A stretch of 64,000 bases of DNA, from contig NZ_JAOTBD010000012.1 in assembly GCF_026162625.1 (NCBI RefSeq), positions 29,229 to 93,228 of the forward strand, read 5' to 3'. A program made the translations under genes and the position numbers. The notes beneath the pieces were generated by a model. The model had not been told where the DNA came from, did not search any database, and worked only from the letters and a program-made list of their open reading frames with translations. Origin of the DNA: Paracoccus beibuensis (GTDB lineage: Bacteria > Pseudomonadota > Alphaproteobacteria > Rhodobacterales > Rhodobacteraceae). This document shows positions 15,111 to 29,371 of this stretch, one piece after another. The stretch's first letter is position 1. The number at the start of each line of letters is the position of its first letter.

Positions 15111-15124
15111 GGCGCCGCTCAGCC
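15105..15124. other. hairpin between convergent genes
   Basis: A 7-bp perfect stem (15105-15111 with 15118-15124, 6-nt loop) covers both stop codons of the convergent hydrolase and phosphate transporter genes. There is no T-run on either strand, so it may act as a weak two-way barrier or be chance in GC-rich DNA. Confidence 0.35.
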
Positions 15125-16603
15125 GCCGATGCTGCTGAGCACCCAGAAGAGGGCCGCCGACAGCGCCGCAGCCGCCGGCACCGTGACCACCCAGGCCGCC
15201 GCGATGGTCAGCACGTGCGACCGGCGCACCAGCTTGCGGCGCCGGCGCTCTTCGGGCGCAAGGCGAGGACGCTCTGGCGCGGCGCCGGCGGCAGTGCGCA
15301 GGCGACGCTCGGCATCCCATTCGCGAAAGAAGCCGACACCGAAGATCGCGCCGACGGCGATATGGGTCGAGCTGACGGGCAGGCCCAGCCAGCTGGCCAC
15401 GATCACCGTCAGGGCCGCGGACAGCGACACGCAATAGGCGCGCATCGGGTTCAGCTTGGTGATCTGGCTGCCGACCATGCGGATCAGCTTCGGCCCGAAG
15501 AGGAAGAGGCCGAATGACAGCCCGAACGCGCCGATCAGCATGACCCAGAGGGGGATCGACACCGCCTCGGTCACGCTGCCAGAGGTCGAAGCCTGCACGA
15601 TGGCGGCCAGCGGTCCGACCGCGTTGGCGACATCGTTGGCGCCATGCGCGAAGCTGAGCAGCGCTGCCGAGACGACCAGCGGAATGCCGAACAGCACCTT
15701 CAGCGACTTGTTGCGGTTTTCCAGCCCCCGCGACTGGCGGCGGATCACCGGGATGCAGACAAGCCAGGTCGCCAAGCCAATCGCCGCGCCCAGAACAAGT
15801 GCACCGCCGAAAGAGACGTCGATCACCTTCCCAAGCCCCTTGAGCGCCAGGTACGCGGCGAACGCCCCCGCCATGATGCCGATCAGGACCGGCACCCAGA
15901 CCCGCGCCGCCGCGATCTTGTCGGTCCGGTAGATGATGCGCGCCTTGATGAACCAGAGGAACCCTGCCGCGATCACGCCGCCCAGCAGCGGCGAGACGAC
16001 CCAGCTTGCCGCGATCGTCGCCATGGTCGGCCAGCTGACTGCGCCGAAGCCCGCAGCGGCGATGCCCGCCCCCATCACGCCACCGACCACCGAATGCGTG
16101 GTCGAGACAGGCGCGCCGATCCACGTCGCGAGGTTCACCCAAAGCGCCGACGACAGCAGCGCCGCCATCATGGCCCACACGAAGACCGCCTGCGTACCGA
16201 TGCTCTCTGGTGCCACGATCCCACGAGAGATCGTTCCGACCACGTCGCCACCCGCGATCAGCGCGCCGCCTGTCTCGAAGATGGCGGCGATGGCGATGGC
16301 GCCTCCCATGCTCAGCGCATTCGCGCCCACCGCCGGGCCCATGTTGTTGGCGACGTCGTTCGCGCCGATGTTCAGCGCCATGTAGGCCCCGATGACCGCC
16401 CCCATGACCACGACCAGCATGTTGCTTGTCTGGCCGAAGGAGAGCATCGCGCCCAGCCCCGCCAGCAGCACGAAAGCCAGCGCGACGCCGGGCGCGACAA
16501 GCCCCCGCGACAGCGCCGTGCCCGCCAGCTCAAGCTGCGAGTAACGGCCGAGATCGCGGTCCAGCGTCTCGAGGTGGCGGGTTTCCAGATCGTTTTGGGC
16601 CAT
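15119..16603 (-). CDS. inorganic phosphate transporter, PiT family
   Basis: A 494-residue inner-membrane protein with about ten or eleven membrane segments and the two inverted PiT signature repeats: GANDVANNMGPAVGA in the first half and GANDVANAVGPLAAI in the second. Such proteins move metal-phosphate with protons or sodium. The start at 16603 (MAQNDLE) is chosen because upstream codons are not transporter-like. The N-terminal ~40 residues are hydrophilic, as in longer PiT forms. No PhoU-like DUF47 gene, the frequent partner, is adjacent. Confidence 0.93.
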   Translation of the reverse strand: MAQNDLETRHLETLDRDLGRYSQLELAGTALSRGLVAPGVALAFVLLAGLGAMLSFGQTSNMLVVVMGAVIGAYMALNIGANDVANNMGPAVGANALSMGGAIAIAAIFETGGALIAGGDVVGTISRGIVAPESIGTQAVFVWAMMAALLSSALWVNLATWIGAPVSTTHSVVGGVMGAGIAAAGFGAVSWPTMATIAASWVVSPLLGGVIAAGFLWFIKARIIYRTDKIAAARVWVPVLIGIMAGAFAAYLALKGLGKVIDVSFGGALVLGAAIGLATWLVCIPVIRRQSRGLENRNKSLKVLFGIPLVVSAALLSFAHGANDVANAVGPLAAIVQASTSGSVTEAVSIPLWVMLIGAFGLSFGLFLFGPKLIRMVGSQITKLNPMRAYCVSLSAALTVIVASWLGLPVSSTHIAVGAIFGVGFFREWDAERRLRTAAGAAPERPRLAPEERRRRKLVRRSHVLTIAAAWVVTVPAAAALSAALFWVLSSIGG

Positions 16604-16716
16604 CTTTTCCTCTGGGTCGTGGATCGGGTGCCTAGGGCCAAACAATGCCGGGATCAACCTGTTCGTTCTGCCCCACCACGCACAATTCCTTGGGTCGGTC
16701 TTCAACCTTCTGGCGA

Positions 16717-16730
16717 TGTAATCCTTTTCA
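16717..16730. promoter_or_regulatory. LacI-type operator 1a
   Basis: TGTAATCCTTTTCA, an imperfect palindrome fitting TGWAANCSNTTWCA. It lies upstream of the exported TIM-barrel gene at 16797 and 21 bp (two helical turns) from operator 1b. Confidence 0.6.
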
Positions 16731-16737
16731 TTCCTCA

Positions 16738-16751
16738 TGAAACCCATTACA
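16738..16751. promoter_or_regulatory. LacI-type operator 1b
   Basis: TGAAACCCATTACA, nearly the same palindrome as the sites at 21890, 27623 and 27656. It is 46 bp ahead of the start at 16797, placing it near the expected promoter. Confidence 0.7.
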
Positions 16752-16796
16752 TTTCAGAGAGCCCCTGAGGAGCGGGGTCGGAACCAGGAGGACTTG

Positions 16797-17660
16797 ATGA
16801 ATTTCGCGAAATCCGCGCTGTTCGCCGGTGCGTCATTGATGACGCTTTCCGTGATGTCGTTGGGGGCCATGGCCCAGGATGCGCGCACCGGCGACCTGCC
16901 CATCGCCGTGCAGATGTATACGCTGCGCGATCACGGCGCGCTGCAGGAACAGCTGGCTGCCGTGCAGGCTGCAGGGGTGACCGCCGTCGAGACCGTTGGC
17001 ATGCAGGACAGCAGCGCCGAGGATCTGAAGGCGCTTCTGGACGAATATGGGATCGAAGCCATCTCGACCCATGCGCAGCTGGCCGATCTGCGCTCGGACC
17101 CGCAGGCGGTGGTCGACTTCAACAAGGCCATTGGCAACGACGTGATCACCGTTCCCTATCTGGCGGAAGAGGATCGTCCCACCGATGCCGCGGGCTGGAC
17201 CGCCCTGGGAGAGGAACTGGCCGCGCTGTCCGAGACCCTCGAAGCCGAGGACATGACGCTGGCCTATCACAACCACGATTTCGAGATGGCCGAGTATGAC
17301 GGCCGCACCGCGCTCGAGATCATGATGGAAGCCGCCGGCGAGGATGTCATGGCCGAGCTGGACCTGGCCTGGGTGGCGCGCGGTGGCTTGGATCCGGTCG
17401 AGTATCTCGGCCGTTTCGACGACCGCGTCTTCGCGATCCACGCCAAGGACAACGCTCCCGAGGGCGAGGCTGCCGACGAACGTGGCTTCAAGGCCCTGGG
17501 TGAAGGCACGCTGGACTGGTCCGCCATCCTGCCCGCCGCCGAGGAAGCTGGCGCGCAGTGGTACATCATCGAACACGACCAGCCGATCGATGCGGCCGAA
17601 GTGGTCATGACCGGCGCGACCTTCCTGACCGAACACCTGCCGGAGAGCGCGACGCGCTGA
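16797..17660 (+). CDS. exported sugar isomerase/epimerase-like TIM-barrel protein
   Basis: A 287-residue protein with a Sec signal peptide (1-26, ending GAMAQDAR) and a xylose-isomerase-like TIM barrel. Typical features are VQMYTLRDHG (barrel start), VETVGM, LAYHNHDFEM (metal-ligand strand), MAELDLAWVARGG, VFAIHAKDN and IIEHDQP near the end. Family members isomerise or epimerise sugars, and some act on 3-keto-glycosides. CCAGGAGG lies ahead of the ATG at 16797. Two LacI-type operators lie upstream and a strong terminator follows, so this is a single-gene transcription unit of the sugar regulon. Periplasmic location is unusual for a sugar isomerase. Confidence 0.87.
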   Translation: MNFAKSALFAGASLMTLSVMSLGAMAQDARTGDLPIAVQMYTLRDHGALQEQLAAVQAAGVTAVETVGMQDSSAEDLKALLDEYGIEAISTHAQLADLRSDPQAVVDFNKAIGNDVITVPYLAEEDRPTDAAGWTALGEELAALSETLEAEDMTLAYHNHDFEMAEYDGRTALEIMMEAAGEDVMAELDLAWVARGGLDPVEYLGRFDDRVFAIHAKDNAPEGEAADERGFKALGEGTLDWSAILPAAEEAGAQWYIIEHDQPIDAAEVVMTGATFLTEHLPESATR

Positions 17661-17682
17661 CCTCCCTGCCGAACAGGTGACT

Positions 17683-17711
17683 GGGGCCGCGATCCTTCGC
17701 GGCCCCTTTTT
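17683..17711 (+). terminator. intrinsic terminator
   Basis: A 10-bp perfect stem (GGGGCCGCGA at 17683-17692, complement at 17697-17706) with a 4-nt loop is followed by TTTTT. It ends the transcript of the exported TIM-barrel gene. Confidence 0.9.
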
Positions 17712-17740
17712 CATGCGTTCGGGAGTGCCGGACCGCCACG

Positions 17741-17770
17741 AGAAAGACCCGCCCCCACAAGGGACGGGCC
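17741..17770 (-). terminator. probable terminator of the DUF1080 operon
   Basis: On the minus strand an 8-bp stem (one G-T pair, arms around 17761-17768 and 17748-17755) is followed by TCTTTCT. It lies 24 bp past the DUF1080 stop and faces the plus-strand terminator. Confidence 0.5.
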
Positions 17771-17793
17771 AAGACACCGGCAGGTTGCCGTTG

Positions 17794-18534
17794 TTACATC
17801 GGTCGGATCCAGATGTTGCGATAGCTGACATCGGCATCATGGTCCTGAAGCGAGATCGGCGCACAGTCATGCGCCTCGTAGGTCGGATAGCCGATCCACT
17901 CGGTCGCGCCCTGGATCTGAGCATGGTTCTGAACCACCACCCCGTTCTGCAACACCGTCACATGGGCCGGCCGACGCAGCGCGCCGTCATCCGAGAAGAC
18001 CGGCGCCTGAAAGATGATGTCATAGCTCTGCCATTCGCCGGGCTCCCGCGACGCGTTCACGAGAGGGATGTGCTGCTTGTAGATCGACCCTGCCTGGCCG
18101 TTCGGATAGGCTGGGTTCTCGAAGCTGTCCAGCACCTGCACCTCGTAGCGTCCCTGCAGCAAGATGCCGCTGTTGCCGCGGTCCTGGCCGTCATGCCCCT
18201 CGTCGTTCGGAGGAGAGCGCCATTCGACATGCAGCTGTGCATCGCAAAAGCTCTGCGTCGTGCGGATGTCGCCCGATCCGCGGTTCACCCGCAGGATCCC
18301 GTCCTCGACCGTCCATTCGGCAGGACCGCCATCCACACTCTCCCAACCATCGAGGTTCGTCCCGTCGAACAGCACCACCGCGTCGGAGGGCGGCTGGTCT
18401 TCGGGCGTCTGCACGGTCGCCGGCACCGGTCCCTCGACTTCGGTGACGCGGGACTGTGCCTGGCGGTCCATGTCCTGCGCCAAGGCCGGCCCGGCCAGCA
18501 CCAGGCCAGCGGCCATCAGGGTCAGTTTCTTCAT
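17794..18534 (-). CDS. exported DUF1080 protein (3-keto-disaccharide hydrolase-like)
   Basis: A 246-residue protein with a Sec signal peptide (MKKLTLMAAGLVLAGPALAQ) and one concanavalin-like beta-jellyroll domain of the DUF1080 type: LFDGTNLDGWES (55-66), WTVEDGILRVNRGSGDIRT, HVEWRSPP, RGNSGILLQGRYEVQVLDSF and the C-terminal YRNIWIRPM. Studied members hydrolyse or cleave glycosides oxidised at C3. It is the last gene of a four-gene operon with a GMC oxidoreductase and its subunit 3, which could make the 3-keto substrate. A strong hairpin precedes it. Confidence 0.9.
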   Translation of the reverse strand: MKKLTLMAAGLVLAGPALAQDMDRQAQSRVTEVEGPVPATVQTPEDQPPSDAVVLFDGTNLDGWESVDGGPAEWTVEDGILRVNRGSGDIRTTQSFCDAQLHVEWRSPPNDEGHDGQDRGNSGILLQGRYEVQVLDSFENPAYPNGQAGSIYKQHIPLVNASREPGEWQSYDIIFQAPVFSDDGALRRPAHVTVLQNGVVVQNHAQIQGATEWIGYPTYEAHDCAPISLQDHDADVSYRNIWIRPM

Positions 18535-18559
18535 GTCGTGATCCTTTCGCGAAGAAAGC

Positions 18560-18584
18560 GGGCCCCGGCGTGGTGCCGGGGCCC
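18560..18584 (-). other. strong intercistronic hairpin
   Basis: A 10-bp perfect GC stem (18560-18569 with 18575-18584, 5-nt loop) lies between subunit 3 and DUF1080. On the minus strand it is followed by GCTTTCTTCG, a poor T-run. It may dampen read-through or protect the upstream mRNA, so the two genes need not be made in equal amounts. Confidence 0.55.
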
Positions 18585-18593
18585 GGAGGAAGA

Positions 18594-19238
18594 TCAGGTC
18601 GCCCAGGCAGGCTCTCCGTCATAGTCCAGATCGCCGATGTATTCGCCCGGCACTGGTTCATAGCGGAGGACCTGCGTGGCCCCGACCTCGGACGTGAAAA
18701 AGCCAAACAGCGTCAACTGCTGGATCGGGGTGAACCAGTGCATCCGCGGCTCGGCCGCCTCCTCGGGCTGCTCGTCGGCGGCGGTATCGGCCGAGCTCTG
18801 CTGGTCGATCGACTGCTCCCTCCGCTCTTCCAGCTCGGCGAGGGCGCGGGCCGACTCCTCGCGTGCGGCCACGGATGCGGCCTGCAGCATCTCGCGGCGT
18901 TCCTCGGCCGTCATCTCCTCGAAGGTCCTGCCATACTCCTCCTGCGCCTTGACCTTCAGTGTCTCCATCCCGTCGCGGAAGGCCGCCTGCTCCTCGGCCG
19001 TATAGCAGTCGCTGACAAAGCGCGTCATGAAGGCGCCGACCCCGGCCTCCTTGGCGCCCGGCGTATCGGTGGCGGGAATGATGGTCTCGGCCACCTCGTC
19101 CAGGAAGGCGGCGTCCGCGTCCGAGAAGATGTTCTCGCCCACCGGCGTCGGCAGATAGGCAAAGGCTCGCTGTCCGCCCAGCATGGCCGTGCCGGTGACG
19201 GCGGCGATCATCGACAGAAGTTGGCGGCGGTTCATCAC
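18594..19238 (-). CDS. gluconate 2-dehydrogenase subunit 3 family protein (GMC partner)
   Basis: A 214-residue protein with a Tat-like signal (NRRQLLSMIAAVTGTAML, residues 3-20). The fold shows the subunit 3 pattern: FLDEVAETIIPATDTPGAKEAG, FMTRFVSDCYTAEEQAAF and the C-terminal block FFTSEVGATQVLRYEPVPG with DLDYDGEPAWAT. The middle is Glu-rich. Such subunits bind the flavin GMC subunit and carry it through the Tat system. Its ATG overlaps the TGA of the GMC gene by 4 nt. No cytochrome c subunit is present nearby. Confidence 0.9.
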   Translation of the reverse strand: MMNRRQLLSMIAAVTGTAMLGGQRAFAYLPTPVGENIFSDADAAFLDEVAETIIPATDTPGAKEAGVGAFMTRFVSDCYTAEEQAAFRDGMETLKVKAQEEYGRTFEEMTAEERREMLQAASVAAREESARALAELEERREQSIDQQSSADTAADEQPEEAAEPRMHWFTPIQQLTLFGFFTSEVGATQVLRYEPVPGEYIGDLDYDGEPAWAT

Positions 19239-20923
19239 AGATCTCCGTTCTTCAGGGCGTTGACGGCGTGCTCCGCCGCCCGCGCGGTCAGCGCCATGTA
19301 GGTCAGCGACGGGTTCACGCAGCTGGCCGAGGTCATGCAGGCCCCGTCCGTCACATAGACGTTCGGCGCGTCCCAGACCTGGTTGTTGCCGTTCAGGACC
19401 GAGGATGCCGGGTCGCGGCCCATCCGCGCCGTGCCCATCTCGTGGATGCCCATGCCGGGGGCATAGTCGCTTTCGGTGGGCTTCACGTCGACGACGCCGG
19501 CGGCCTCGAGGATATCAACCGCGTCCTGCTTCATGTCCTGGCGCATGCGCATCTCGTTCTCGCGCAGGTCCACGCTGATCGACAGGACCGGCAGGCCCCA
19601 CTTGTCGGTCTTCGACCGGTCCAGCGCAATGAAGTTGTCATGATAGGGCAGCATCTCGCCAAAGCCGGTCATGCCGATGGTCCAGTCGCCGGGCTTGGAC
19701 AGCGCCTCCTTCATGTCGGCGCCGATGTTCAGCTCGGCGACCTCGCGCCGCCAGCCCTGCCGGCTGGCCGATCCCTGATAGCCGAAGCCACGGGTATAGG
19801 GGCGCTCCTCGCCCTCGGTGTTGCGAAAGCGCGGGATGTAGAAGCCGGCGGGACGGCGGCCGAAATAGTACTTGTCGTCATAGCCCTCGACCCGGCCTTC
19901 GGCGCCCACGCGGAAATGGTGGTCCATGACGTTGTGACCCAATTCACCGGACGACGATCCCAGCCCGCCTTCCCAGACATCGGTCGCAGAATTCATCAGC
20001 ACCCAGGTGGAGTTGAAGCTGGAGGCGTTCAGGAACACCACATCGGCGGTGTATTCGTAAGTCATGTTGGTTTCGGCGTCGATGATCTCGACCCCGCGGG
20101 CGCGCTTGCGGTCCTTGTCGTAGAGGACCTCCTTCACGATGGAAAACGGCCGCAGCGTCAGGTTGCCGGTTGCCATGGCCACCGGAAGGGTTGCCGACTG
20201 CGTGCTGAAATAGGCGCCATAGGGGCAGCCCAGCCAGCATTTGTTCCGGTACTGGCAGGCGATGCGGTTCTGCTCTGGCTTGGCCTCGGTGATATTGGCC
20301 ACCCGTGCGTTGATCAGGTAGCGCTTGCCGCCGAAGGCCTTGCGCAGGCGCGCGGCGACGTCCTTTTCCACGATGTTCAGCGGGATCGGCGGCAGGAATT
20401 GTCCATCGGGCAGGATGTCCAGCCCCTCCTGCGACCCCGAGATCCCGGCAAAGCGTTCCACGTGGTCGTACCACGGCGCGATATCGGCATAGCGGATAGG
20501 CCAGTCGGTCGCGATCCCCTCCCGCTCGTTGGCGGTGAAGTCGGTGTCGGACAGGCGATAGGACTGGCGCCCCCACATCAGCGACCGGCCACCGACATGA
20601 TAGCCGCGGAACCAGTCGAAGCGTTTGGCCTCGGTATAGGGGTTCTCCTGCTCGTTGGCCCACATGCCGAAGGTCTGCTCGTTCAGAGGGTAGTCGCGGC
20701 GCAGGACCGGATAGTTGTCCTTCATCTCGATCGTCGCGGTGCCGCGATGGGGATAGTCCCAGGCTTCCTTGTCGGCGTTCACATAGTCGGTCAGGTGCTC
20801 GATGTTGCGGCCGCGCTCGAGCATCAGGACCTTCAGGCCCCTTTCGGTCAGTTCCTTGGCGGCCCAACCGCCGCTGATGCCCGATCCGACGACGATCGCG
20901 TCGTAATGCATGTTCTCTGCCAT
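19235..20923 (-). CDS. GMC-family FAD-dependent sugar dehydrogenase, catalytic subunit
   Basis: A 562-residue flavoprotein. The FAD loop VVGSGISGG is at 11-19; further blocks are GGRSLMWGRQSYR, the CQYRNKCWLGCPYGAYF cysteine segment typical of periplasmic sugar dehydrogenases, HEMGTARMG with the catalytic His, and NPSLTYMALTARAAEH. It has no signal peptide and probably leaves the cell with the Tat-signal subunit 3, encoded next. Relatives oxidise gluconate, fructose or the C3 of glycosides. The DUF1080 neighbour favours C3 oxidation here, but this is inference. Confidence 0.92.
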   Translation of the reverse strand: MAENMHYDAIVVGSGISGGWAAKELTERGLKVLMLERGRNIEHLTDYVNADKEAWDYPHRGTATIEMKDNYPVLRRDYPLNEQTFGMWANEQENPYTEAKRFDWFRGYHVGGRSLMWGRQSYRLSDTDFTANEREGIATDWPIRYADIAPWYDHVERFAGISGSQEGLDILPDGQFLPPIPLNIVEKDVAARLRKAFGGKRYLINARVANITEAKPEQNRIACQYRNKCWLGCPYGAYFSTQSATLPVAMATGNLTLRPFSIVKEVLYDKDRKRARGVEIIDAETNMTYEYTADVVFLNASSFNSTWVLMNSATDVWEGGLGSSSGELGHNVMDHHFRVGAEGRVEGYDDKYYFGRRPAGFYIPRFRNTEGEERPYTRGFGYQGSASRQGWRREVAELNIGADMKEALSKPGDWTIGMTGFGEMLPYHDNFIALDRSKTDKWGLPVLSISVDLRENEMRMRQDMKQDAVDILEAAGVVDVKPTESDYAPGMGIHEMGTARMGRDPASSVLNGNNQVWDAPNVYVTDGACMTSASCVNPSLTYMALTARAAEHAVNALKNGDL

Positions 20924-20956
20924 CTGGCTTTCCTTTCAGCTTTGCTAGCGGCTTCT

Positions 20957-21850
<894 letters not shown>

Positions 21851-21889
21851 GGTCTTCCTCCCTTGGTGTGGTGGCCCCGGTCGCCAGAA

Positions 21890-21903
21890 TGAAACCGTTT
21901 ACA
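21890..21903. promoter_or_regulatory. LacI-type operator 2
   Basis: TGAAACCGTTTACA, the best match to the locus consensus, lies 39 bp upstream of the Tat-exported TIM-barrel gene and near the expected promoter of the GMC operon. Confidence 0.75.
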
Positions 21904-21936
21904 CAGCGGGGCGGAACGACCCTCCTCCGGGTCGAA

Positions 21937-21961
21937 GCGGCGCGGGATGGACCCGCGCCGC
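21937..21961 (-). other. hairpin after the ABC binding-protein gene
   Basis: A 10-bp perfect GC stem (21937-21946 with 21952-21961) with a 5-nt loop lies 10 bp past the binding-protein stop on the minus strand. It lacks a T-run. It may stabilise the mRNA end or cause partial termination before the next operon. Confidence 0.5.
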
Positions 21962-21970
21962 GATATCAGA

Positions 21971-22906
21971 TCAATAGGGGCTGTCTTCGAAATAGAAGTT
22001 GTCGGCGTTTTCCGGCGTGATCAGCTCGGACGCGATGATGAACTCGCCCGACATGGGCGCGCCCGAGGTCAGGCCCAGGGCCGTCATCTCTATCGCGGTC
22101 GAGATCATCGCCGGCGGATAGGTCACGTTCACCGGAACCGTCGGGTCGTCGTTTCTGATGCGGTCGACCATTTCCTTCATGCCGGCACCGCCGACGACGA
22201 ACATTTCGTCGGTGCGGCCGGCTTGGTCGATGGCTGCCAGGGCGCCCACGGCCATGTCGTCGTCGGCCGCCCAGACCGCGTCGATCTCGGGGAAGCGCGA
22301 CAGCCAGTCCTGCATCAGGTTGAAGGCCGTGTCGCGGTTCCAATTGCCGTGGTCCATCGCCAGGACTTCGATGCCCGCCCCTTCGATGGCCGACTCGAAG
22401 CCCGCCACGCGCTCATTGTCGACGGTGGAGGCGATGCCGCGCATCACCACGACCTTCGCGCCCTCGTCCAGCGTGTCGGCAAAATACTGCCCCGCCGTGC
22501 GGCCGAAGCTGTCGTTGTCGCCGGCGACATAGAGGTTCTCGATCCCTTCCTGCGTCAGGCCGCGGTCGACGACCGTTACCCAGACACCGCTGTCGGCGAT
22601 GCGCTGGATCGGACCGGTCAGCGGCTCGGATTCGAAGGGCAGAACGACCAGCGCGTCGATGCCGCGCGTGGCGACCATGTCCTCGAGGTCGGACACCTGC
22701 TGGCCCGGGTCCGAGGTCGTGGTCAGCACGAATTCCAGATCGGGATTTGCCTCGGACAGCCGTTCGACAGTGCGTTCGGCGTGAAAGTTCAGCGCCCCCG
22801 CCCAGCCATGCGTCGCGGCCGGGATCGAGATGCCGATGGTTTCCGACAGCGCCGGTACGGCCGTCAGGCCAAGCAGCGCGGTCGTGGCGATCAGGGTCTT
22901 TCTCAT
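21971..22906 (-). CDS. sugar ABC transporter substrate-binding protein (ribose type)
   Basis: A 311-residue periplasmic binding protein with a Sec signal (MRKTLIATTALLGLTAVPALS). It is of the RbsB/LacI-like type: IGISIPAATHGWAGAL, NPDLEFVLTTTSD, ALVVLPFESEPL, VVDRGL, DAVWAADDDMAVGAL. I start at 22906 because GGAGGAG lies 8 nt ahead; a GTG at 22924 would include that site. It is the last gene of the five-gene import operon, an unusual place for the binding protein, which is normally made in excess. Confidence 0.93.
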   Translation of the reverse strand: MRKTLIATTALLGLTAVPALSETIGISIPAATHGWAGALNFHAERTVERLSEANPDLEFVLTTTSDPGQQVSDLEDMVATRGIDALVVLPFESEPLTGPIQRIADSGVWVTVVDRGLTQEGIENLYVAGDNDSFGRTAGQYFADTLDEGAKVVVMRGIASTVDNERVAGFESAIEGAGIEVLAMDHGNWNRDTAFNLMQDWLSRFPEIDAVWAADDDMAVGALAAIDQAGRTDEMFVVGGAGMKEMVDRIRNDDPTVPVNVTYPPAMISTAIEMTALGLTSGAPMSGEFIIASELITPENADNFYFEDSPY

Positions 22907-22933
22907 GGTAGTTACTCCTCCCACAGGTGAAAA

Positions 22934-23929
22934 TCAGCGCGCGGTGCCGGTATTCCGTTGCAGCACGACGGCCAGGATGATGACGACGCCCTGGATGGCA
23001 CCGTTCAGATACGGGCTGACGAAGTCGGTCAGGTTCAGCAGGTTGCCGATCAGCGACAGGATCAGCACCCCCACGACCGTGCCCCAGACCCGGCCGAAGC
23101 CGCCCTTCAAAAGCGTGCCGCCGATGATGACGGCCGCGATAGCCTCAAGCTCCCACAGAAGGCCGGTGGTGGCCGAGGCCGAACCGAGGCGCGGGACGTA
23201 CATGACCACCGCGATGCCGACCAGAAGGCCCAGCATGACATAGGTCATCAGCCGCACCCGCAGTACCGCCACGGACGAATAGCGGGCCACCTTCTCATTG
23301 GACCCGATGGCGGCGCAGTGCCGGCCGAAGGCCGTGTGGCGCATCACGATCTCGCCCAGGATGGCCAAGGCCGCGAAGACGATGATCGGCCAGCTGATGC
23401 CCATGATGCCGCCGTAATAGACGGGGCGGTACAGTTCCCGCATCTCGTAACCCAGCGACAGCGTGCCGCCGTCGGCCAGCCAGGTGACCAGGCTGCGATA
23501 GATGCCCATGGTGCCAAGGGTCAGGATGAACGCCTCGATGCCCGCGCGGGTAATCAGGATGCCGTTGATGAACCCCGCCGCCAGCCCCGCGAACAGCGCA
23601 AGCGCCACGCCGATCAGGATGACGGGCAGCCCGCCCCCCATGTTCTCGGTCAACAGGTTCATCACCAGAATCATCAGACCCGCGACAAAGGCCGCCATCG
23701 AGCCCACGGAGAGGTCCAGCCCCCCCGCGGTGATGACGAAGGTCATGCCGATGGCGATGATGCCGATGAACGCGGACCGCGCCAGCACGTTGGTGATGTT
23801 GGCAAAGCTGAGGAAGTTCGGGTTCATCGCGATGCCGATCAGCACCAGCACGACCAGCGCCACGATTGGCGCGATGACGGCCAGGTTTATCTTGGGCCGG
23901 CGCGTCTGTTGAAGGGTTGCCGTGCTCAT
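22934..23929 (-). CDS. sugar ABC transporter permease (RbsC-like)
   Basis: A 331-residue inner-membrane permease with about eight to ten membrane segments. The family signature is visible: FVITAGGLDLSVGSMAAF near residue 65, followed by INGILITRAGIEAFILTLGT and the late block GFGRVWGTVVGVLILSLIGN. It overlaps the ATPase gene by 4 nt and carries the sugar bound by the downstream binding protein. Confidence 0.94.
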   Translation of the reverse strand: MSTATLQQTRRPKINLAVIAPIVALVVLVLIGIAMNPNFLSFANITNVLARSAFIGIIAIGMTFVITAGGLDLSVGSMAAFVAGLMILVMNLLTENMGGGLPVILIGVALALFAGLAAGFINGILITRAGIEAFILTLGTMGIYRSLVTWLADGGTLSLGYEMRELYRPVYYGGIMGISWPIIVFAALAILGEIVMRHTAFGRHCAAIGSNEKVARYSSVAVLRVRLMTYVMLGLLVGIAVVMYVPRLGSASATTGLLWELEAIAAVIIGGTLLKGGFGRVWGTVVGVLILSLIGNLLNLTDFVSPYLNGAIQGVVIILAVVLQRNTGTAR

Positions 23930-25431
23930 GCCGCACTGTCCTCTTTGTTGTCGTCCATCCCCATCGCCAGTCGCACGATATTGCCTTCGGTGACCGCGTC
24001 ACCCGCCAGCTCTCCGGCGATGCGGCCGGCATGCATGACGATGACGCGCCCCGCGAGGCCGATAAGCTCCGGCATCTCGGACGAGATCACGATGATGCTG
24101 CGGCCTTCGGCGGCCAGCTTGGCGATGAGGGTATAGATCTGTTGCTTGGTGCCGATGTCGATGCCGCGCGTCGGCTCGTCGATGATGACGACCTCGGGGT
24201 CCGACAGAAGCGTCTTTGCGAGAAGCAGCTTCTGCTGGTTGCCCCCCGACAGATCGCCCACCGCCATGCCGCGTTCCGGTGCCCGGATGGCGAAGTCGTC
24301 GATGGCGCGGTCCAGCGCCGCTTCCTCGCGCCCGCGGTCGATCAGCGGGCGGCCGAATGTCTCCAGCAGCGGCAGCGTCAGGTTCTCGCGCAGGGTCTTG
24401 TCCAGAAGCAGGCCTGCGCCCTTGCGGTCCTCGGTCAGGTAGGCAAGGCCAGCGCGCATCGCATGGGCCACCTGGTTCGGCGGCAGTTCCTGCCCCTTCA
24501 GGCGCACCGTGCCGCTGCGCGGGCGCAATCCCGCGATGGCCTCGGCCAGTTCGGTGCGGCCGGACCCCACCAGCCCGCCGATGCCCAGCACCTCTCCTTT
24601 GCGCAGGCTCAGACTGGCACCCTCGACGACGCCGGGAACCGAGACGCCGCCGACTTCAAGGATCGCGTCGGCGCCCCCGCCGACCTTCGCCGGGAACAGG
24701 TCGGACAGCTCGCGCCCGACCATGGCGGCGGCCATGTCGTCCTCGGTCACGTCCGTTGTCCTGTCGGAGCGGATCATCGTGCCGTCGCGCAGGACCGTCA
24801 CCCGGTCGGCGATGCGCTTCACCTCGCCCAGCTTGTGCGACGTATAGAGGATCGCCACGCCTTCGGCGCGCAGCCGCTCGATCTGGCGGAACAGCACCTC
24901 GGTTTCCCGGCCGGTCAGCACCGCGGTCGGCTCGTCCATGATCAGGACGCGCGCCTTGCGCGACAGGGCCTTGGCGATCTCGACCATCTGCTTGTCGGGG
25001 ACCGACAACTGGTTCACGGGCGTTGCAGGATCGACACGGCATTCCAGCTGCGACAGAAGCTCCGCCGTCCGGGCGCGCATCGACTTGTGGTCCAGGAACG
25101 GCCCGCGTCTCAGTTCGCGCCCCAAAAAGACGTTCTGGTCGACCGACAGGTGCTCGGCCAGGTTGAATTCCTGGTGGATCATGATGATCCCCCGATCCTC
25201 GGCCTCGTCCGAGCCGGCAAATCGGATGGGCTTGCCGTCAAAGGTCACCTGGCCGCCGGTGGGATCCAGATAGCCCGCCAGGATCTTCATCGTCGTGGAC
25301 TTGCCTGCGCCGTTCTCGCCGATCAGCGCATGCACCTCTCCGGGATGCAGCGCGAAATCGACGCCGTGCAGGATTTCGATGGGACCGAAGGACTTCGTGA
25401 CGCCTTCCAGCGCCAGGACAGGGCTTGTCAT
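23926..25431 (-). CDS. sugar ABC transporter ATP-binding protein (double-domain, RbsA/MglA-like)
   Basis: A 501-residue protein with two ATPase domains. Domain 1 has Walker A GENGAGKS (about 38-45), the signature region LSVPDKQMVEIAKAL and DEPTAVLTG. Domain 2 has GLVGSGRTE in place of a standard Walker A, as usual in this family, then LSGGNQQKLLLAK and DEPTRGID. Overlaps of 4 nt with the genes on both sides indicate tight coupling in the operon. Confidence 0.95.
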   Translation of the reverse strand: MTSPVLALEGVTKSFGPIEILHGVDFALHPGEVHALIGENGAGKSTTMKILAGYLDPTGGQVTFDGKPIRFAGSDEAEDRGIIMIHQEFNLAEHLSVDQNVFLGRELRRGPFLDHKSMRARTAELLSQLECRVDPATPVNQLSVPDKQMVEIAKALSRKARVLIMDEPTAVLTGRETEVLFRQIERLRAEGVAILYTSHKLGEVKRIADRVTVLRDGTMIRSDRTTDVTEDDMAAAMVGRELSDLFPAKVGGGADAILEVGGVSVPGVVEGASLSLRKGEVLGIGGLVGSGRTELAEAIAGLRPRSGTVRLKGQELPPNQVAHAMRAGLAYLTEDRKGAGLLLDKTLRENLTLPLLETFGRPLIDRGREEAALDRAIDDFAIRAPERGMAVGDLSGGNQQKLLLAKTLLSDPEVVIIDEPTRGIDIGTKQQIYTLIAKLAAEGRSIIVISSEMPELIGLAGRVIVMHAGRIAGELAGDAVTEGNIVRLAMGMDDNKEDSAA

Positions 25432-26540
25432 GCCATTACCTCGACCCAGCCGGCGTCGGCGGCGTTCGAGCGGATGCAGGCATCGATGAAGTGCAGGCCT
25501 TCCAGGCCGTCATCAATGCCCGGCAGGGTGTCTGGGATGCGCCCCGTGCGGATTGCCTCGGCCGCTTCGGAATAAAGGTTCGCGAACCCTTCCAGATAAC
25601 CTTCGGGATGGCCCGGCGGCACTCGGCTGTTGCCGGCCACCGTGCCGGGGCCGCCGCGGCGCAGCTTCTGCGTCGGCTGACCGAACGGGGTGAACCATAG
25701 TGTCTCGGGCGCCTCGTGCTGCCACTCCAGCCCGCCCTTGTCGCCATAGACGCGCAGCTTCATACCGTTCTCGGTTCCCGGTGCGACCTGCGAGGCCCAG
25801 AGCATCCCCTTGGCGCCATCTGCATAACGCATCAGGATATGCGCGTTGTCGTCCAGCCGGCGGCCCACAACAAAGCTCGACAGATCGGCCGCCAGCCGTT
25901 CGGGCCGCATCCCGGTCGCGAAGCGCGCCAGTTGGAATGCGTGGGTGCCGATGTCACCAATCGCCCCGCCTGCTCCGGCCTTCGACGGATCGCCACGCCA
26001 CGATGCCTGCTTGCTGTCGCTGTCCTCGGTCAGCCAGTCCTGGGCATATTCCACCTGCACCAGGCGCAAGGTGCCCAGATCGCCGCGCGCGATCATCGCC
26101 CGCGCCTGCCTGATCATTGGATAGGCCGAATAGTTGTGGGTCAGGACGAACATCGCATCGGACGAACGTGCGATGGCGGCAAGCTCTTGCGCCTCCTCCA
26201 TCGTCGCGGTCATCGGCTTGTCGCAGATGACATGGATGCCTTGTGCCAGGAAGGCGCGCGCAACCGGGAAATGCAGATGGTTCGGGGTGCAGACTGACAC
26301 GGCCTGGATGCCGTCGTCGCGGCCGGCTTCCCCGCGGGCCATTTCCTCGAAATCGGCATAGCTGCGGGCGATGCCCACCTCGGCCGCGCTGGCGGCCGCG
26401 CGAGCGGGGTCCGATGACAGCGCCCCTGCCACCAGGTCGAACTGCCCGTCCAGCCGCGACGCGATCCGGTGCACGTTGCCGATCATGGCCCCGGCCCCGC
26501 CGCCGACCATGCCAAGGCGAATGGGAACGTGCCGGGTCAT
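25428..26540 (-). CDS. Gfo/Idh/MocA-family oxidoreductase
   Basis: A 370-residue NAD(P)-dependent sugar oxidoreductase. The N-terminal Rossmann domain shows GMVGGGAGAMIGNVHR (about 9-24), TPNHLHFPVA and the signature CDKPMT, with the catalytic-type Lys. The C-terminal domain has GDIGTHAFQLARF (HxF) typical of inositol/sugar dehydrogenases. Such enzymes often oxidise or reduce sugars at C3, which fits the locus. It has no signal peptide, so it acts in the cytoplasm on imported product. It overlaps neighbours by 4 nt on each side. Confidence 0.92.
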   Translation of the reverse strand: MTRHVPIRLGMVGGGAGAMIGNVHRIASRLDGQFDLVAGALSSDPARAAASAAEVGIARSYADFEEMARGEAGRDDGIQAVSVCTPNHLHFPVARAFLAQGIHVICDKPMTATMEEAQELAAIARSSDAMFVLTHNYSAYPMIRQARAMIARGDLGTLRLVQVEYAQDWLTEDSDSKQASWRGDPSKAGAGGAIGDIGTHAFQLARFATGMRPERLAADLSSFVVGRRLDDNAHILMRYADGAKGMLWASQVAPGTENGMKLRVYGDKGGLEWQHEAPETLWFTPFGQPTQKLRRGGPGTVAGNSRVPPGHPEGYLEGFANLYSEAAEAIRTGRIPDTLPGIDDGLEGLHFIDACIRSNAADAGWVEVMA

Positions 26541-27595
26541 CTGTCCAGCCCCAGCATCCGGCGATTTGCGGCCATGTCGGCCCCTCCGTTCGCAAAATCG
26601 TCAAAGGCGCGGTCGGTGACGCGAATGATATGGTCTCGCACGAAGGCCGCACCTTCGCGTGCGCCATCCTCGGGGTGCTTCAAGGCACATTCCCATTCCA
26701 CCACGGCCCACCCGTCGAACCCGATCGTCGTCAGCTTGGAGAAGATGGCCTTGAAGTCAACCTGCCCGTCGCCAGGGCTGCGGAACCGCCCCGCGCGATC
26801 GACCCACGGCTGATAGCCGCCATAGACGCCTTGCCGGCCGGTCGGGTTGAACTCGGCATCCTTGACGTGGAACATGCCGATCCGGTCGGCATAGATGTCG
26901 ATGTTCTGCAGGTAGTCCAGCTGCTGCAACAGGTAGTGCGAAGGATCGTAGAGCATCTTCGCCCGGGGATGCTGGTCCACGCGGTCCAAAAACATCTCGA
27001 AGCTGATGCCGTCGTGCAGGTCCTCTCCGGGGTGGATCTCGAAGCAGATGTCGACGCCGCGGCTGTCGGCATGATCCAGGATCGGGCGCCAGCGGGCGGC
27101 AAGCTCGTCGAAGGCCGCCTCGACCAGACCTTCGGGGCGCTGCGGCCAGGGGTAGAAGTAGGGCCAGGCCAGCGCGCCCGAAAACGCCGCCATCCGGTCT
27201 AGGCCGAGATTGGCCGAGGCGTCGATGGTCTTTCTGACCTGATCGACCGCCCAAGCCTGCCGCGCGACCGGATTGCCGCGCATGGCCTGTGGTGCAAATC
27301 CGTCGAAGGCCGCGTCGAAGGCCGGATGGACCGCGACCAGTTGGCCCTGCACATGGGCCGAAAGCTCGGTGATGCGGACGCCGTTGTCATCAGCCTGCCC
27401 CCTCAGTTCGTCGCAATAGCCGCTTGAGGTCGCCGCCAGATCGAGATCCATCAGCGGCGTCGCGCCCGAAGGAACCTGCACCCCCAGATAGCCGCATTCC
27501 GCCGCCCATTTCGTGATCGCGCCAAAGCTGTCGAATGGCGCCGACGTTCCCACGAACTGCGCCAGAAACAACCCGGGCCCCTGGATCGTCTTCAT
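26537..27595 (-). CDS. cytoplasmic sugar isomerase/epimerase-like TIM-barrel protein
   Basis: A 352-residue protein without a signal peptide. TIM-barrel blocks are WAAECGYLGVQVP, VRITELSAHVQGQL, VDICFEIHPGEDLHDG (metal-ligand Glu), KMLYDPSHYLLQQLDY (Asp and His), MFHVKDAEF and WAVVEWECALKHP. Length and the GxDLHDG segment match the longer IolE/epimerase branch. I start at 27595 where AGGAGG lies 4 nt ahead; an in-frame start at 27637 would contain the operator. It is the first gene of the import operon, behind two LacI-type operators. Confidence 0.92.
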   Translation of the reverse strand: MKTIQGPGLFLAQFVGTSAPFDSFGAITKWAAECGYLGVQVPSGATPLMDLDLAATSSGYCDELRGQADDNGVRITELSAHVQGQLVAVHPAFDAAFDGFAPQAMRGNPVARQAWAVDQVRKTIDASANLGLDRMAAFSGALAWPYFYPWPQRPEGLVEAAFDELAARWRPILDHADSRGVDICFEIHPGEDLHDGISFEMFLDRVDQHPRAKMLYDPSHYLLQQLDYLQNIDIYADRIGMFHVKDAEFNPTGRQGVYGGYQPWVDRAGRFRSPGDGQVDFKAIFSKLTTIGFDGWAVVEWECALKHPEDGAREGAAFVRDHIIRVTDRAFDDFANGGADMAANRRMLGLDR

Positions 27596-27622
27596 GTATC
27601 CTCCTGAAGCCGAAGATCCCCA

Positions 27623-27636
27623 TGTAATCGGTTTCA
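27623..27636. promoter_or_regulatory. LacI-type operator 3a
   Basis: TGTAATCGGTTTCA lies 27 bp upstream of the import operon start, in the divergent gap shared with the lacI-type gene. Confidence 0.75.
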
Positions 27637-27655
27637 TATTGACGCTCTCACAACA

Positions 27656-27669
27656 TGAAGTCGTTTACA
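27656..27669. promoter_or_regulatory. LacI-type operator 3b
   Basis: TGAAGTCGTTTACA lies 33 bp (about three helical turns) from operator 3a and 49 bp ahead of the repressor gene, so the repressor can regulate both directions, including itself. Confidence 0.7.
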
Positions 27670-27718
27670 ACAGGATTTTTTCGGCTAAAGCCTGTGATGA
27701 TCCAGCAGCGAGAATGCC

Positions 27719-28756
27719 GTGTCCGCTCAAGCCCGCCCGCCCCGCATCAGCGACGTCGCCAAGCTTGCGGGCGTGTCCGTGGCGACCGTCAGCCGCGCAA
27801 TCTCGAACCCGTCGATCGTTTCCGAGGCGACGCGAAAGGCGGTCGAGGAAGCCATTGCCCAGATGGGCTATACGCTGAACTTCACCGCGCGGAACCTGCG
27901 CCAGCAGCAGGTCGGAGGCGTCCTGGCCCTGGTGCCGAAACTGTCGAACCCGTTCTTCTCGCAGATCCTGGCCGGGATCTCGGGCGTTCTGCGGACAAGG
28001 GACCTCAGCCTGCTGGTGCTGGACACGACCGCCGCGCCTGACCAGTCGGCGATGAAGGTGCTGGGGCCATATCTGAACCGGTCGCGGTCCGACGGGGTGA
28101 TCGTGCTGGACGGCAACCTCGATCCCCGGCTGTTCGACCAGCCCGGATGTCCGCCGCTGGTGCAGGCCTGCGAATGGATCGCGGGACTGCCCGCCCCCCG
28201 CGTTCTGGCCGACAATGTCGAGGGCGGCCGTCTGGCGGCCTGCCACCTGACAAGCCTCGGCCACCGCCGCATCATGCATGTCACCGGCCCTGCCCGAAAC
28301 TCTCTGACCGTGGCGCGGCGCGAAGGCTTCGCCGCCGGCCTGGCCGAGGCCGGCCTGCCCGACGCCACGCCGGACCTGCGGATCGAAGGCGACTTCACCG
28401 CCCGCTTCGGGCTGGAGGCGGCCGAGCGACTGCTGGCGCTGGAAGACCGCCCCACTGCGGTCTTTTGCGATAACGACGAAATGGCGATAGGGCTGATGAA
28501 CGGACTGATGCGGGCGGGCCTGCGGGTGCCGCAGGACATGTCGGTCATCGGCTTCGACAACATCGAGATGTCGGCCTTCTGCCTGCCGGGCCTGACCACG
28601 ATCCGTCAGTACCGGGCGCGCCTGGGGCAGCGCGCGGCGGAATTGCTGCTGGCCCGGATGCGCGGAGAGGAAATCACGGACAGCACGACGCTCGGCGTGG
28701 ATCTGCTGATCCGCGACAGCACGGCCCCTGCCCCGGCGGATCTGTCGAAATCATGA
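27719..28756 (+). CDS. LacI-family transcriptional regulator
   Basis: A 345-residue repressor starting at GTG. The N-terminal HTH reads RISDVAKLAGVSVATVSRAI (9-28), with the hinge helix near FTARNLRQQQ (about 55-64). The effector domain follows: GGVLALVPKLSNPFFSQIL, DGVIVLDGNL, VFCDNDEMAIGLMNGL, SVIGFDNIEMS. It is divergent from the import operon, and the 14-bp palindromes found here and before the two other operons of the locus are the natural binding sites. The inducer is probably a sugar product of the pathway. Confidence 0.94.
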   Translation: MSAQARPPRISDVAKLAGVSVATVSRAISNPSIVSEATRKAVEEAIAQMGYTLNFTARNLRQQQVGGVLALVPKLSNPFFSQILAGISGVLRTRDLSLLVLDTTAAPDQSAMKVLGPYLNRSRSDGVIVLDGNLDPRLFDQPGCPPLVQACEWIAGLPAPRVLADNVEGGRLAACHLTSLGHRRIMHVTGPARNSLTVARREGFAAGLAEAGLPDATPDLRIEGDFTARFGLEAAERLLALEDRPTAVFCDNDEMAIGLMNGLMRAGLRVPQDMSVIGFDNIEMSAFCLPGLTTIRQYRARLGQRAAELLLARMRGEEITDSTTLGVDLLIRDSTAPAPADLSKS

Positions 28757-28822: not shown

Positions 28823-29371
28823 ATGCCTATGCCCGAAGCCGAGTTACCGGAAGCCCTGCGCGCTCAGATCGCCCGATCGACAGTCGCCCTGTCACTGGCC
28901 ACCGCGGATGCCCCAGACATGCCGCTCTGCCTGGCCAATGATGCCTTCTTCCGCCTGAGCGGATATGACGCAGACGCGGTTCATGGCCGCAACTGCCGCT
29001 TTCTTCGGACGCCGGACACTCCGCCCGAACAGGTTCGGGAGATGACCCGGTTCCTGCACGCGGACGATCGCGACGACGGGCGGTTTCCGGTCCTGAACCG
29101 CACGCGGCAGGGTCGGGTGTTCACGAACCTCGTCTTCATGTCGAAGCTGCGTGGGCAGGACGGACGGGTCCGCTTCGTCATTGCCTCTCAGTTTGACCAG
29201 AGCGTCGCCGACCGCGCCACCGCGCAGCGGCAAAACGACGCCGCGCTGACCCGCAGCGTGGGCGACCTGCGGGTGGCGGCGGCGCAGTTCGGTCTGATCC
29301 TCTCGGATACATCTGCGCTGCTGGCGCGGTCGGTCAGCACGCTCGCACGGATCGCGGTGCGCGATGAATGA
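28823..29371 (+). CDS. short LOV-domain (blue-light PAS) protein
   Basis: A 182-residue protein. Residues about 33-128 form a PAS domain with the LOV signature GRNCRFL (55-61); Cys58 is the residue that forms the flavin adduct in known LOV proteins. Other flavin contacts are in place: Asn92 in LNRTRQG, Asn102 in FTNLVFMSKL and Gln123 in FVIASQ. One departure is Arg62 where a Gln is common. A C-terminal helical tail (130-182) has no recognised domain. The second ATG (28829) has the better-spaced AGGA. It overlaps the following kinase gene by 8 nt, so it is probably its light-sensing partner. Confidence 0.88.
   Translation: MPMPEAELPEALRAQIARSTVALSLATADAPDMPLCLANDAFFRLSGYDADAVHGRNCRFLRTPDTPPEQVREMTRFLHADDRDDGRFPVLNRTRQGRVFTNLVFMSKLRGQDGRVRFVIASQFDQSVADRATAQRQNDAALTRSVGDLRVAAAQFGLILSDTSALLARSVSTLARIAVRDE

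What the first reader, a model, noticed from the sequence alone, without database searches (positions are those of the whole stretch)
16717..28756. A single LacI-controlled locus combining periplasmic 3-keto-glycoside chemistry with ABC import
Seen: an exported TIM-barrel protein, an exported DUF1080 protein, a GMC dehydrogenase with Tat-signal subunit 3, a Tat-exported second TIM-barrel protein, then a ribose-type ABC importer, a Gfo/Idh/MocA oxidoreductase, a third cytoplasmic TIM-barrel protein and a LacI regulator. Established: DUF1080 proteins include 3-keto-disaccharide hydrolases, and GMC/subunit 3 pairs oxidise sugars. Inference: glycosides are oxidised at C3 and cleaved outside the membrane, and the keto-sugar is imported and reduced by Gfo/Idh/MocA. 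An arrangement with two exported TIM barrels and no cytochrome subunit is unusual and may be an undescribed pathway variant.
Basis: partly seen in the sequence, partly recalled or inferred. Interest (0 to 1): 0.78.

Follow-up and report, generated by a model that had tools for sequence, protein, structure and literature searches.

The report
Membrane-split non-hydrolytic glycoside utilisation locus
This bacterial gene cluster encodes enzymes with export signals that are predicted to oxidise sugar conjugates (glycosides) and split them outside the inner membrane, plus an importer and cell-interior enzymes that likely take in the keto-sugar fragment and turn it into glucose; it is an enlarged version of a known Agrobacterium pathway and makes it testable which sugar crosses the membrane.

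Summary
This is not a new kind of pathway: it is a member of the four-enzyme, non-hydrolytic glycoside route published for Agrobacterium tumefaciens (GlycDH, OGE, HYD, Gfo), with two extra exported enzymes. The first exported TIM barrel is a relative of the solved beta-eliminase AtOGE (8BVK, E 6.6e-94) with its metal and catalytic residues; the cytoplasmic barrel is a relative of the solved 2-hydroxy-3-keto-glucal hydratase (8RO4, E 1.5e-162). Cleavage is thus predicted to be by elimination. DUF1080's solved relatives are eliminase/hydratases; the Tat-exported barrel is epimerase-like and unassigned. A 16-bp palindrome stands before OGE, before the Tat-barrel operon and between HYD and LacI; its exact form occurs at three places in the 3.94-Mb genome, all here, supporting one LacI regulon. 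Among 95 distinct loci, OGE with a signal peptide goes with CUT2 or MFS importers (31 of 31) and OGE without one with CUT1 (47 of 47), but the tree holds only one independent contrast. Many genomes hold the importer-hydratase-reductase half alone. New variant of a known kind; interest 0.5.

The parts
16716..16752 (.). Two putative LacI operators (16716-16731, 16737-16752), 21 bp apart, before OGE
   Evidence: 0 mismatches each; a pair with the same 21-bp spacing in 16 of 17 OGE-bearing loci of other genomes scanned
16797..17660 (+). OGE: TIM barrel with Sec-type signal, relative of 3-keto-O-glucoside beta-eliminase AtOGE
   Evidence: 8BVK E 6.6e-94; E65 H92 H158 H160 E187 D189 H215 E259 match AtOGE residues; conservation in 95 relatives
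17683..17711 (.). GC hairpin followed by T run between the convergent OGE and DUF1080 genes (terminator-like)
   Evidence: Seen in the sequence printed; no terminator scan was run
17794..18534 (-). DUF1080 (PF06439) protein with Sec-type start; predicted periplasmic 3-keto-glycoside eliminase/hydratase
   Evidence: 151.1 bits against cut-off 26.8; model matches 4qhz and, more distantly, the eliminase/hydratase entries 8rr2, 9fbe, 8tda, 8v31
18594..19235 (-). Gluconate_2-dh3 (subunit 3), Tat-type start MNRRQLL; its ATG overlaps the GMC stop
19235..20923 (-). GMC flavoprotein, GlycDH type; C223, C229, C233 align with cysteines of fructose dehydrogenase; H494 and N537 align too
   Evidence: 77% identical to the GMC of the Agrobacterium-type operons
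20957..21850 (-). TIM barrel with Tat-type signal, epimerase-like, function unassigned; E174 D210 H236 E273
21889..21904 (.). Putative LacI operator before the Tat-barrel/GMC/subunit 3/DUF1080 operon
   Evidence: 1 mismatch; a site at that gene in 12 of 16 loci of other genomes that have it
21971..22906 (-). CUT2 (ribose-type) substrate-binding protein
   Evidence: 4joq E 4.4e-134
22934..23929 (-). CUT2 permease (PF02653)
23926..25431 (-). CUT2 ATPase
25428..26540 (-). Gfo/Idh/MocA oxidoreductase, predicted 3-keto-glucose reductase
   Evidence: 62% identical to the Gfo of the Agrobacterium-type operon L266
26537..27595 (-). HYD: cytoplasmic TIM barrel, relative of 2-hydroxy-3-keto-glucal hydratase
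   Evidence: 8RO4 E 1.5e-162; start by Shine-Dalgarno
27622..27670 (.). Two putative LacI operators (27622-27637, 27655-27670) between HYD and LacI
27719..28756 (+). LacI-family regulator

Best explanation
The locus encodes a glycoside-utilisation pathway, likely run by one LacI-family regulator, in which enzymes with export signals are predicted to oxidise glycosides at C3 and split them by elimination outside the inner membrane, and an ABC importer with two cytoplasmic enzymes would then take in the keto-sugar fragment and convert it to glucose. Step by step, all activities inferred from relatives: (1) GMC plus its Tat-signal partner (GlycDH type) oxidises C3 of a bound glucosyl unit. (2) The exported OGE removes the aglycone from beta-glucosides by Mn-assisted beta-elimination, giving 2-hydroxy-3-keto-glucal; the exported DUF1080 protein probably does the same for alpha-linked or disaccharide substrates and may hydrate the product. 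(3) The Tat-exported barrel probably epimerises or isomerises a keto-sugar in the periplasm, widening the substrate range; its exact reaction is open. (4) The CUT2 importer carries the keto-glucal or 3-keto-glucose inward. (5) HYD hydrates the glucal to 3-keto-glucose and Gfo reduces it to glucose. Shown here: gene content, homology, signal sequences, kept active-site residues, conserved order, operator-like sites. Not shown: any activity, the transported sugar, or LacI binding.
For: OGE: 8BVK E 6.6e-94, and the residues named in PMC10628242 as metal-binding or catalytic are present. HYD: 8RO4 '2-hydroxy-3-keto-glucal hydratase' E 1.5e-162. In PMC10628242 the A. tumefaciens operon holds GlycDH, OGE, HYD and Gfo; OGE was characterised in depth, and OGE, HYD and Gfo were put together in one pot on 3-keto-phlorizin, with the hydratase role called preliminary there. 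DUF1080 relatives are titled eliminase/hydratases in the PDB. Xanthomonas sacchari and Halomonas-type loci keep the enzymes but have a nucleoside-permease-like MFS protein in place of the ABC importer, as expected if import is a separate step between exported and cytoplasmic enzymes. Three own-genus genomes hold the two halves at different places. Exact operator pattern at 3 places in the genome, all here.
Against: The importer-hydratase-reductase half is common without the exported half: of 50 genomes with an HYD locus lacking GMC, 49 have no GMC of this type at E <= 1e-60, and 12 of 32 CUT2-type ones have no OGE at E <= 1e-20 either. So CUT2 need not serve a home-made periplasmic product. 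The signal/importer link rests on one independent contrast on the tree. Two GMC-linked OGE genes (L258, L260) show no signal peptide. The operator pattern was composed by eye from these sites, so its count in the window is partly circular. No cytochrome partner was found with one query (itself a weak test), leaving the electron sink unknown.
Confidence: 0.72

Rival explanations
1. Hydrolytic reading of the first reader: GMC oxidises C3, DUF1080 hydrolyses the 3-keto-glycoside, 3-keto-glucose is imported and reduced; the TIM barrels are accessory isomerases.
For: [quoted passage not shown] The net reaction is the same.
Against: OGE and HYD relatives are a solved beta-eliminase and a solved glucal hydratase. 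Ketogulonicigenium robustum, the Agrobacterium-type operon and one own-genus genome (G027, L148) have OGE and GMC but no DUF1080 at the locus (G027 also had none genome-wide), so OGE alone probably suffices for cleavage there.
Confidence: 0.12
2. The ABC importer carries intact glycosides or an unrelated monosaccharide, and the exported block and the CUT2-HYD-Gfo block only share a regulator; the cytoplasmic block serves another sugar.
For: CUT2-HYD-Gfo blocks, mostly with LacI, occur without GMC, and some without OGE, in many genomes; the SBP is only typed as ribose-like.
Against: OGE loci without a signal use CUT1 importers in 47 of 47 cases with a recognised importer, OGE loci with a signal CUT2 or MFS in 31 of 31, though this is clade-bound; the importer is an MFS permease in other lineages with the enzymes unchanged; the operator-like sites persist even where the halves are apart (L014, L016, L147).
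Confidence: 0.22
3. The locus is for levoglucosan (1,6-anhydroglucose): Gfo as levoglucosan dehydrogenase, the barrels as LgdB1/LgdB2.
For: Gfo's best NCBIfam match is levoglucosan dehydrogenase; the levoglucosan route has the same oxidation-elimination-hydration-reduction logic (PMC10066097, passages).
Against: 115 bits against the equivalog cut-off of 650; the described levoglucosan oxidation is by a NAD-dependent Gfo-type enzyme, with no use for a GMC pair, an exported OGE or DUF1080.
Confidence: 0.04

Closest known systems
A. tumefaciens GlycDH-OGE-HYD-Gfo operon (Bitter et al. 2023, PMC10628242; abstract, parts 1, 2 and 4 of ten of the text, and passages seen)
   Same: Same four enzyme families, GMC plus Tat-signal partner; Agrobacterium-type operons fetched here also have a signal-bearing OGE, a CUT2 importer and LacI
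   Different: The window adds exported DUF1080 and a Tat-exported epimerase-like barrel, has a one-permease instead of a two-permease CUT2, and OGE on the opposite strand
Caulobacter crescentus LacABC plus DUF1080 lactose route (Price et al. 2022, PMC9007349; abstract, one section and passages seen)
   Same: Periplasmic C3 oxidation and an exported DUF1080 protein, with a transporter, two epimerases and a reductase nearby
   Different: The paper gives three dehydrogenase components (lacABC) and leaves the fate of the keto-sugar open; the window has two components and an OGE/HYD pair
Bacteroides/Alistipes eliminase-hydratases (PDB 8tda, 8v31, 8rr2, 9fbe, by title; Nasseri 2024 and Kastner 2024 not held, their content recalled)
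   Same: DUF1080 fold and predicted chemistry
   Different: Window DUF1080 is only 19-22% identical to them; its close solved relative 4qhz (about 56%) is untyped
Xanthomonas sacchari and Halomonas sp. PA16-9 loci
   Same: OGE, DUF1080, subunit 3, GMC, Tat barrel, HYD, Gfo, LacI
   Different: Nucleoside-permease-like MFS importer instead of ABC; Xanthomonas also has a small cytochrome c

Membership tests
Four-enzyme non-hydrolytic glycoside pathway (Bitter 2023) | GlycDH-type GMC, OGE, HYD and Gfo in one locus | tested here: met
Four-enzyme non-hydrolytic glycoside pathway (Bitter 2023) | Glycoside to glucose by oxidation, elimination, hydration, reduction | not testable with these tools
   Needs enzymes
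AtOGE-type beta-eliminase | Homology to 8BVK, its metal ligands (His132, Asp163, His189, Glu233) and catalytic His134 | tested here: met
   ungapped 251-residue alignment
2-hydroxy-3-keto-glucal hydratase | Homology to 8RO4 | tested here: met
   E 1.5e-162; active-site residues not checked
PF06439 (DUF1080) | Score above gathering cut-off, and fold | tested here: met
GlycDH (GMC plus Tat-signal subunit) | Close relation to the GMC of Agrobacterium-type operons, with subunit 3 bearing the Tat-type start | tested here: met
   77% identical; C3 selectivity not testable
LacABC-type three-component dehydrogenase | Cytochrome c component in the locus | tested here: not met
   The eleven genes leave no gap over about 135 bp between 16797 and 28756, and none of the ten scanned has a cytochrome domain (the ATPase was scanned). 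Elsewhere in the genome one query found nothing (a weak test)
Levoglucosan dehydrogenase pathway | Gfo above the NF052479 cut-off | tested here: not met
   115 of 650 bits
YcjR-type 3-keto-glucoside 4-epimerase (for the Tat barrel) | Closest solved relative and metal site | tested here: inconclusive
LacI regulon | Shared palindrome at the promoters of the locus and rare elsewhere | tested here: met
   binding not tested

The most novel reading that the evidence does not exclude
The pathway is cut in two by the inner membrane, the species that crosses it is an unsaturated keto-sugar (2-hydroxy-3-keto-glucal) or 3-keto-glucose, and the CUT2 importer (an MFS permease in other lineages) is its dedicated transporter. 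The CUT2-HYD-Gfo units found in genomes without GMC, and in 12 of 32 without OGE, would then be scavengers that live on keto-sugars leaked by neighbours that carry the exported half.
Probability: 0.3. Interest if true: 0.75.

Novelty: new variant of a known kind. Interest (0 to 1): 0.5.

Why it matters
Price et al. call the fate of the 3-keto-galactose released in the periplasm unknown, and three of the A. tumefaciens enzymes were combined in one pot, in a paper whose held main text does not contain the word 'periplasm'. This locus puts the exported half, an importer and the cytoplasmic half under one rare operator-like sequence, so the transported intermediate becomes a simple binding and deletion test. 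It also offers a concrete regulon motif, and suggests that the eliminase's location and the importer class go together. If the scavenger reading holds, keto-sugars would be a shared food among bacteria. Nine searches of the held library gave no description of this split; two key papers (Kastner 2024, Nasseri 2024) are not held, so it may be in print.

Tried and rejected
Levoglucosan reading: rejected on the NCBIfam cut-off. Idea that OGE loci without a signal (CUT1 plus a second Gfo) are levoglucosan loci: the two of their Gfo proteins that I scanned score only 61 and 65 of 650 bits, so their substrate is left open. My first guess that A. tumefaciens OGE is cytoplasmic while this one is exported: dropped, because Agrobacterium-type operons have an OGE with a signal peptide whose mature part agrees with the 8BVK sequence (about 10 differences in 251 residues, counted by eye). 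Prediction that every CUT2-HYD-Gfo genome has the exported block elsewhere: in the three own-genus genomes whose halves are apart both are present (found from the exported side), but it failed for 49 of 50 GMC-less HYD genomes. Tat barrel as a second hydratase or eliminase: no support; the fold searches place it among epimerases/isomerases without a clear winner. tRNA and Rfam scans of the window: nothing.

Method limits: signal peptides were called with my own rule, plus labels set by hand for 17 loci. In one search a motif miss left 26 rows untested and labelled 'no signal' by default; I re-ran the rule on all rows while checking this report: 94 of 95 labels agree with the rule, the exception being L246 (CUT1), where the rule sees a signal in sequence upstream of an ATG five residues before the barrel, and which I keep as 'no signal'. 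Importer class was set by tblastn within 10.5 kb; CUT1 permeases needed 40% identity to one Agrobacterium sp. T29 cluster; 100 OGE rows, 5 dropped as duplicates; 17 of 95 had no importer recognised (12 with a signal, 5 without). The window itself is not among the 95.


Full report
What is there. The eleven genes claimed lie at 16797-28756 in the stated order. The genome is of a Paracoccus-like genus: the nearest named relatives of HYD and of the Tat barrel listed are Paracoccus species. Start sites were refined from Shine-Dalgarno sequences: OGE 16797, SBP 22906, HYD 27595. OGE and DUF1080 carry Sec-type starts, subunit 3 (MNRRQLL) and the Tat barrel (MSRRGLF, arginines nearly invariant in 41 relatives) Tat-type starts; GMC has none and would be carried out by subunit 3, as is known for this enzyme group (recalled, inference).

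The known pathway. PMC10628242 (abstract, parts 1, 2 and 4 of ten of the main text, and passages seen) reports an operon of A. tumefaciens in which GlycDH, OGE, HYD and a Gfo oxidoreductase are to turn a beta-glucoside into aglycone and glucose by oxidation, elimination, hydration and reduction. OGE was characterised in depth; OGE, HYD and Gfo were combined on 3-keto-phlorizin, and the hydratase role is called preliminary. GlycDH was expressed with a Tat-signal partner; no cytochrome is in the list of expressed proteins. L266's GMC is 77%, HYD 66%, Gfo 62% and OGE 57% identical to the window's. Both OGE genes begin with a signal peptide. The window locus is thus a member of that pathway, with DUF1080 and the Tat barrel added.

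Where each step happens. Fetched loci fall into two architectures. In one, OGE has a signal peptide and stands with a CUT2 ABC importer (own genus, Palleronia, Ketogulonicigenium, Agrobacterium type) or an MFS protein (Xanthomonas, Halomonas and other gammaproteobacterial types), mostly with GMC/subunit 3. In the other, OGE lacks a signal and stands with a CUT1 importer and a second Gfo protein. Among 95 distinct OGE loci, 47 of 47 with CUT1 lack a signal (one, L246, by my hand against the rule) and 31 of 31 with CUT2 or an MFS importer have one; 17 had no recognised importer (12 with a signal, 5 without). On the tree the signal label changes only twice, and only one independent pair exists, so this is a clade-level pattern. 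Inside the signal-bearing clade the importer type needs at least three changes on that tree, and CUT1 was not seen. Exceptions: L258 and L260 have GMC with an OGE without a signal. Among 34 GMC-linked loci, DUF1080 and the Tat barrel are both present in 28, both absent in 3, Tat barrel alone in 2, DUF1080 alone in 1, so the two probably act together.

Regulation. A palindrome ATGWAAYCNNTTWCAT occurs (up to 2 mismatches) at five places in the 64-kb window, all in this locus: 16716 and 16737 before OGE, 21889 before the Tat-barrel operon, 27622 and 27655 between HYD and LacI (9 strand matches against 0.36 expected). The pattern was composed by eye from these and related sites, so that figure is partly circular. 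Two checks are less so. In the whole genome the exact pattern is found at three places, all here; with up to one mismatch at nine places, four of them here; the control pattern at none. In 21 other loci from 18 genomes, the pair before OGE is present with the same 21-bp spacing in 16 of 17 that have OGE, a site in front of LacI in 19 of 21, and a site before the Tat barrel in 12 of 16 that have it.

Results against the simple story. The cytoplasmic half is an independent unit: of 50 genomes holding HYD without a nearby GMC (49 of the 58 I first asked for, plus one), one has a GMC of this type at E <= 1e-60; of 32 of these with CUT2, 20 have an OGE relative (29-41% identical) somewhere and 12 none at E <= 1e-20. 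Only 8 of those 23 OGE relatives had their N-terminus read; all 8 start close to the barrel. Either those bacteria take up keto-sugars made by others, or HYD-Gfo-CUT2 also serves other substrates. In three own-genus genomes (G030, G032, G087) the two halves are at different places but both present.

Literature state. PMC9007349 (abstract, one section and passages) proposes periplasmic C3 oxidation by LacABC and cleavage by exported DUF1080 in Caulobacter, reports that a transporter, two epimerases and a reductase nearby matter for lactose, and calls the fate of the 3-keto-galactose unknown. PMC10066097 (passages) describes the levoglucosan version. PMC13273386 (passages) cites Kastner 2024 (Angew) for the pathway and lists Nasseri 2024 (Nature); neither is held, so what they say about localisation was not seen.

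Verdict. Real, conserved, probably one regulon; chemistry predicted with good confidence from close relatives; a new variant of a known kind. The open and interesting point is the transported keto-sugar and the many importer-hydratase-reductase units that lack the exported half.

Noticed in passing
L023, L025, L042, L047 and other HYD loci: LacI-HYD-Gfo-CUT2 units in genomes without GMC of this type, and in 12 of 32 genomes without OGE: possible scavengers of keto-sugars.
   Followed up: partly
window 29364-32756: One 1130-aa protein fuses CheB, CheR, PAS and an HWE histidine kinase, preceded by a PAS protein at 28823-29371.
   Followed up: no
window 15119-16747: PHO4-type phosphate transporter beside and diverging from OGE; the operator pair lies within the 5' end of its longest reading, so its true start is probably further in.
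   Followed up: no
G000:C46:5728-5743: A one-mismatch copy of the operator-like palindrome (TTGTAACCGGTTACAT) outside the locus; may mark another member of the regulon.
   Followed up: no
Klebsiella and Enterobacter plasmid records, hits H8-H14: OGE relatives (about 40% identical) on enterobacterial plasmids; in the one such context looked at (L233, by length apparently the record of H8) no other marker gene was found nearby.
   Followed up: partly
L269 10.8-11.5 kb: The OGE of a Rhizobium rhizogenes genome changes sequence abruptly near its C-terminus, possibly a frameshift.
   Followed up: no
L258, L260: GMC (45-46%), HYD, Gfo and a Tat-barrel relative with an OGE that shows no signal peptide: an exception to the pattern.
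   Followed up: partly
G005:C1:2531575-2532642 and G005:C10:240863-241930: HYD is present twice with the same score in one genome, on two contigs, suggesting a recent duplication or plasmid copy.
   Followed up: no
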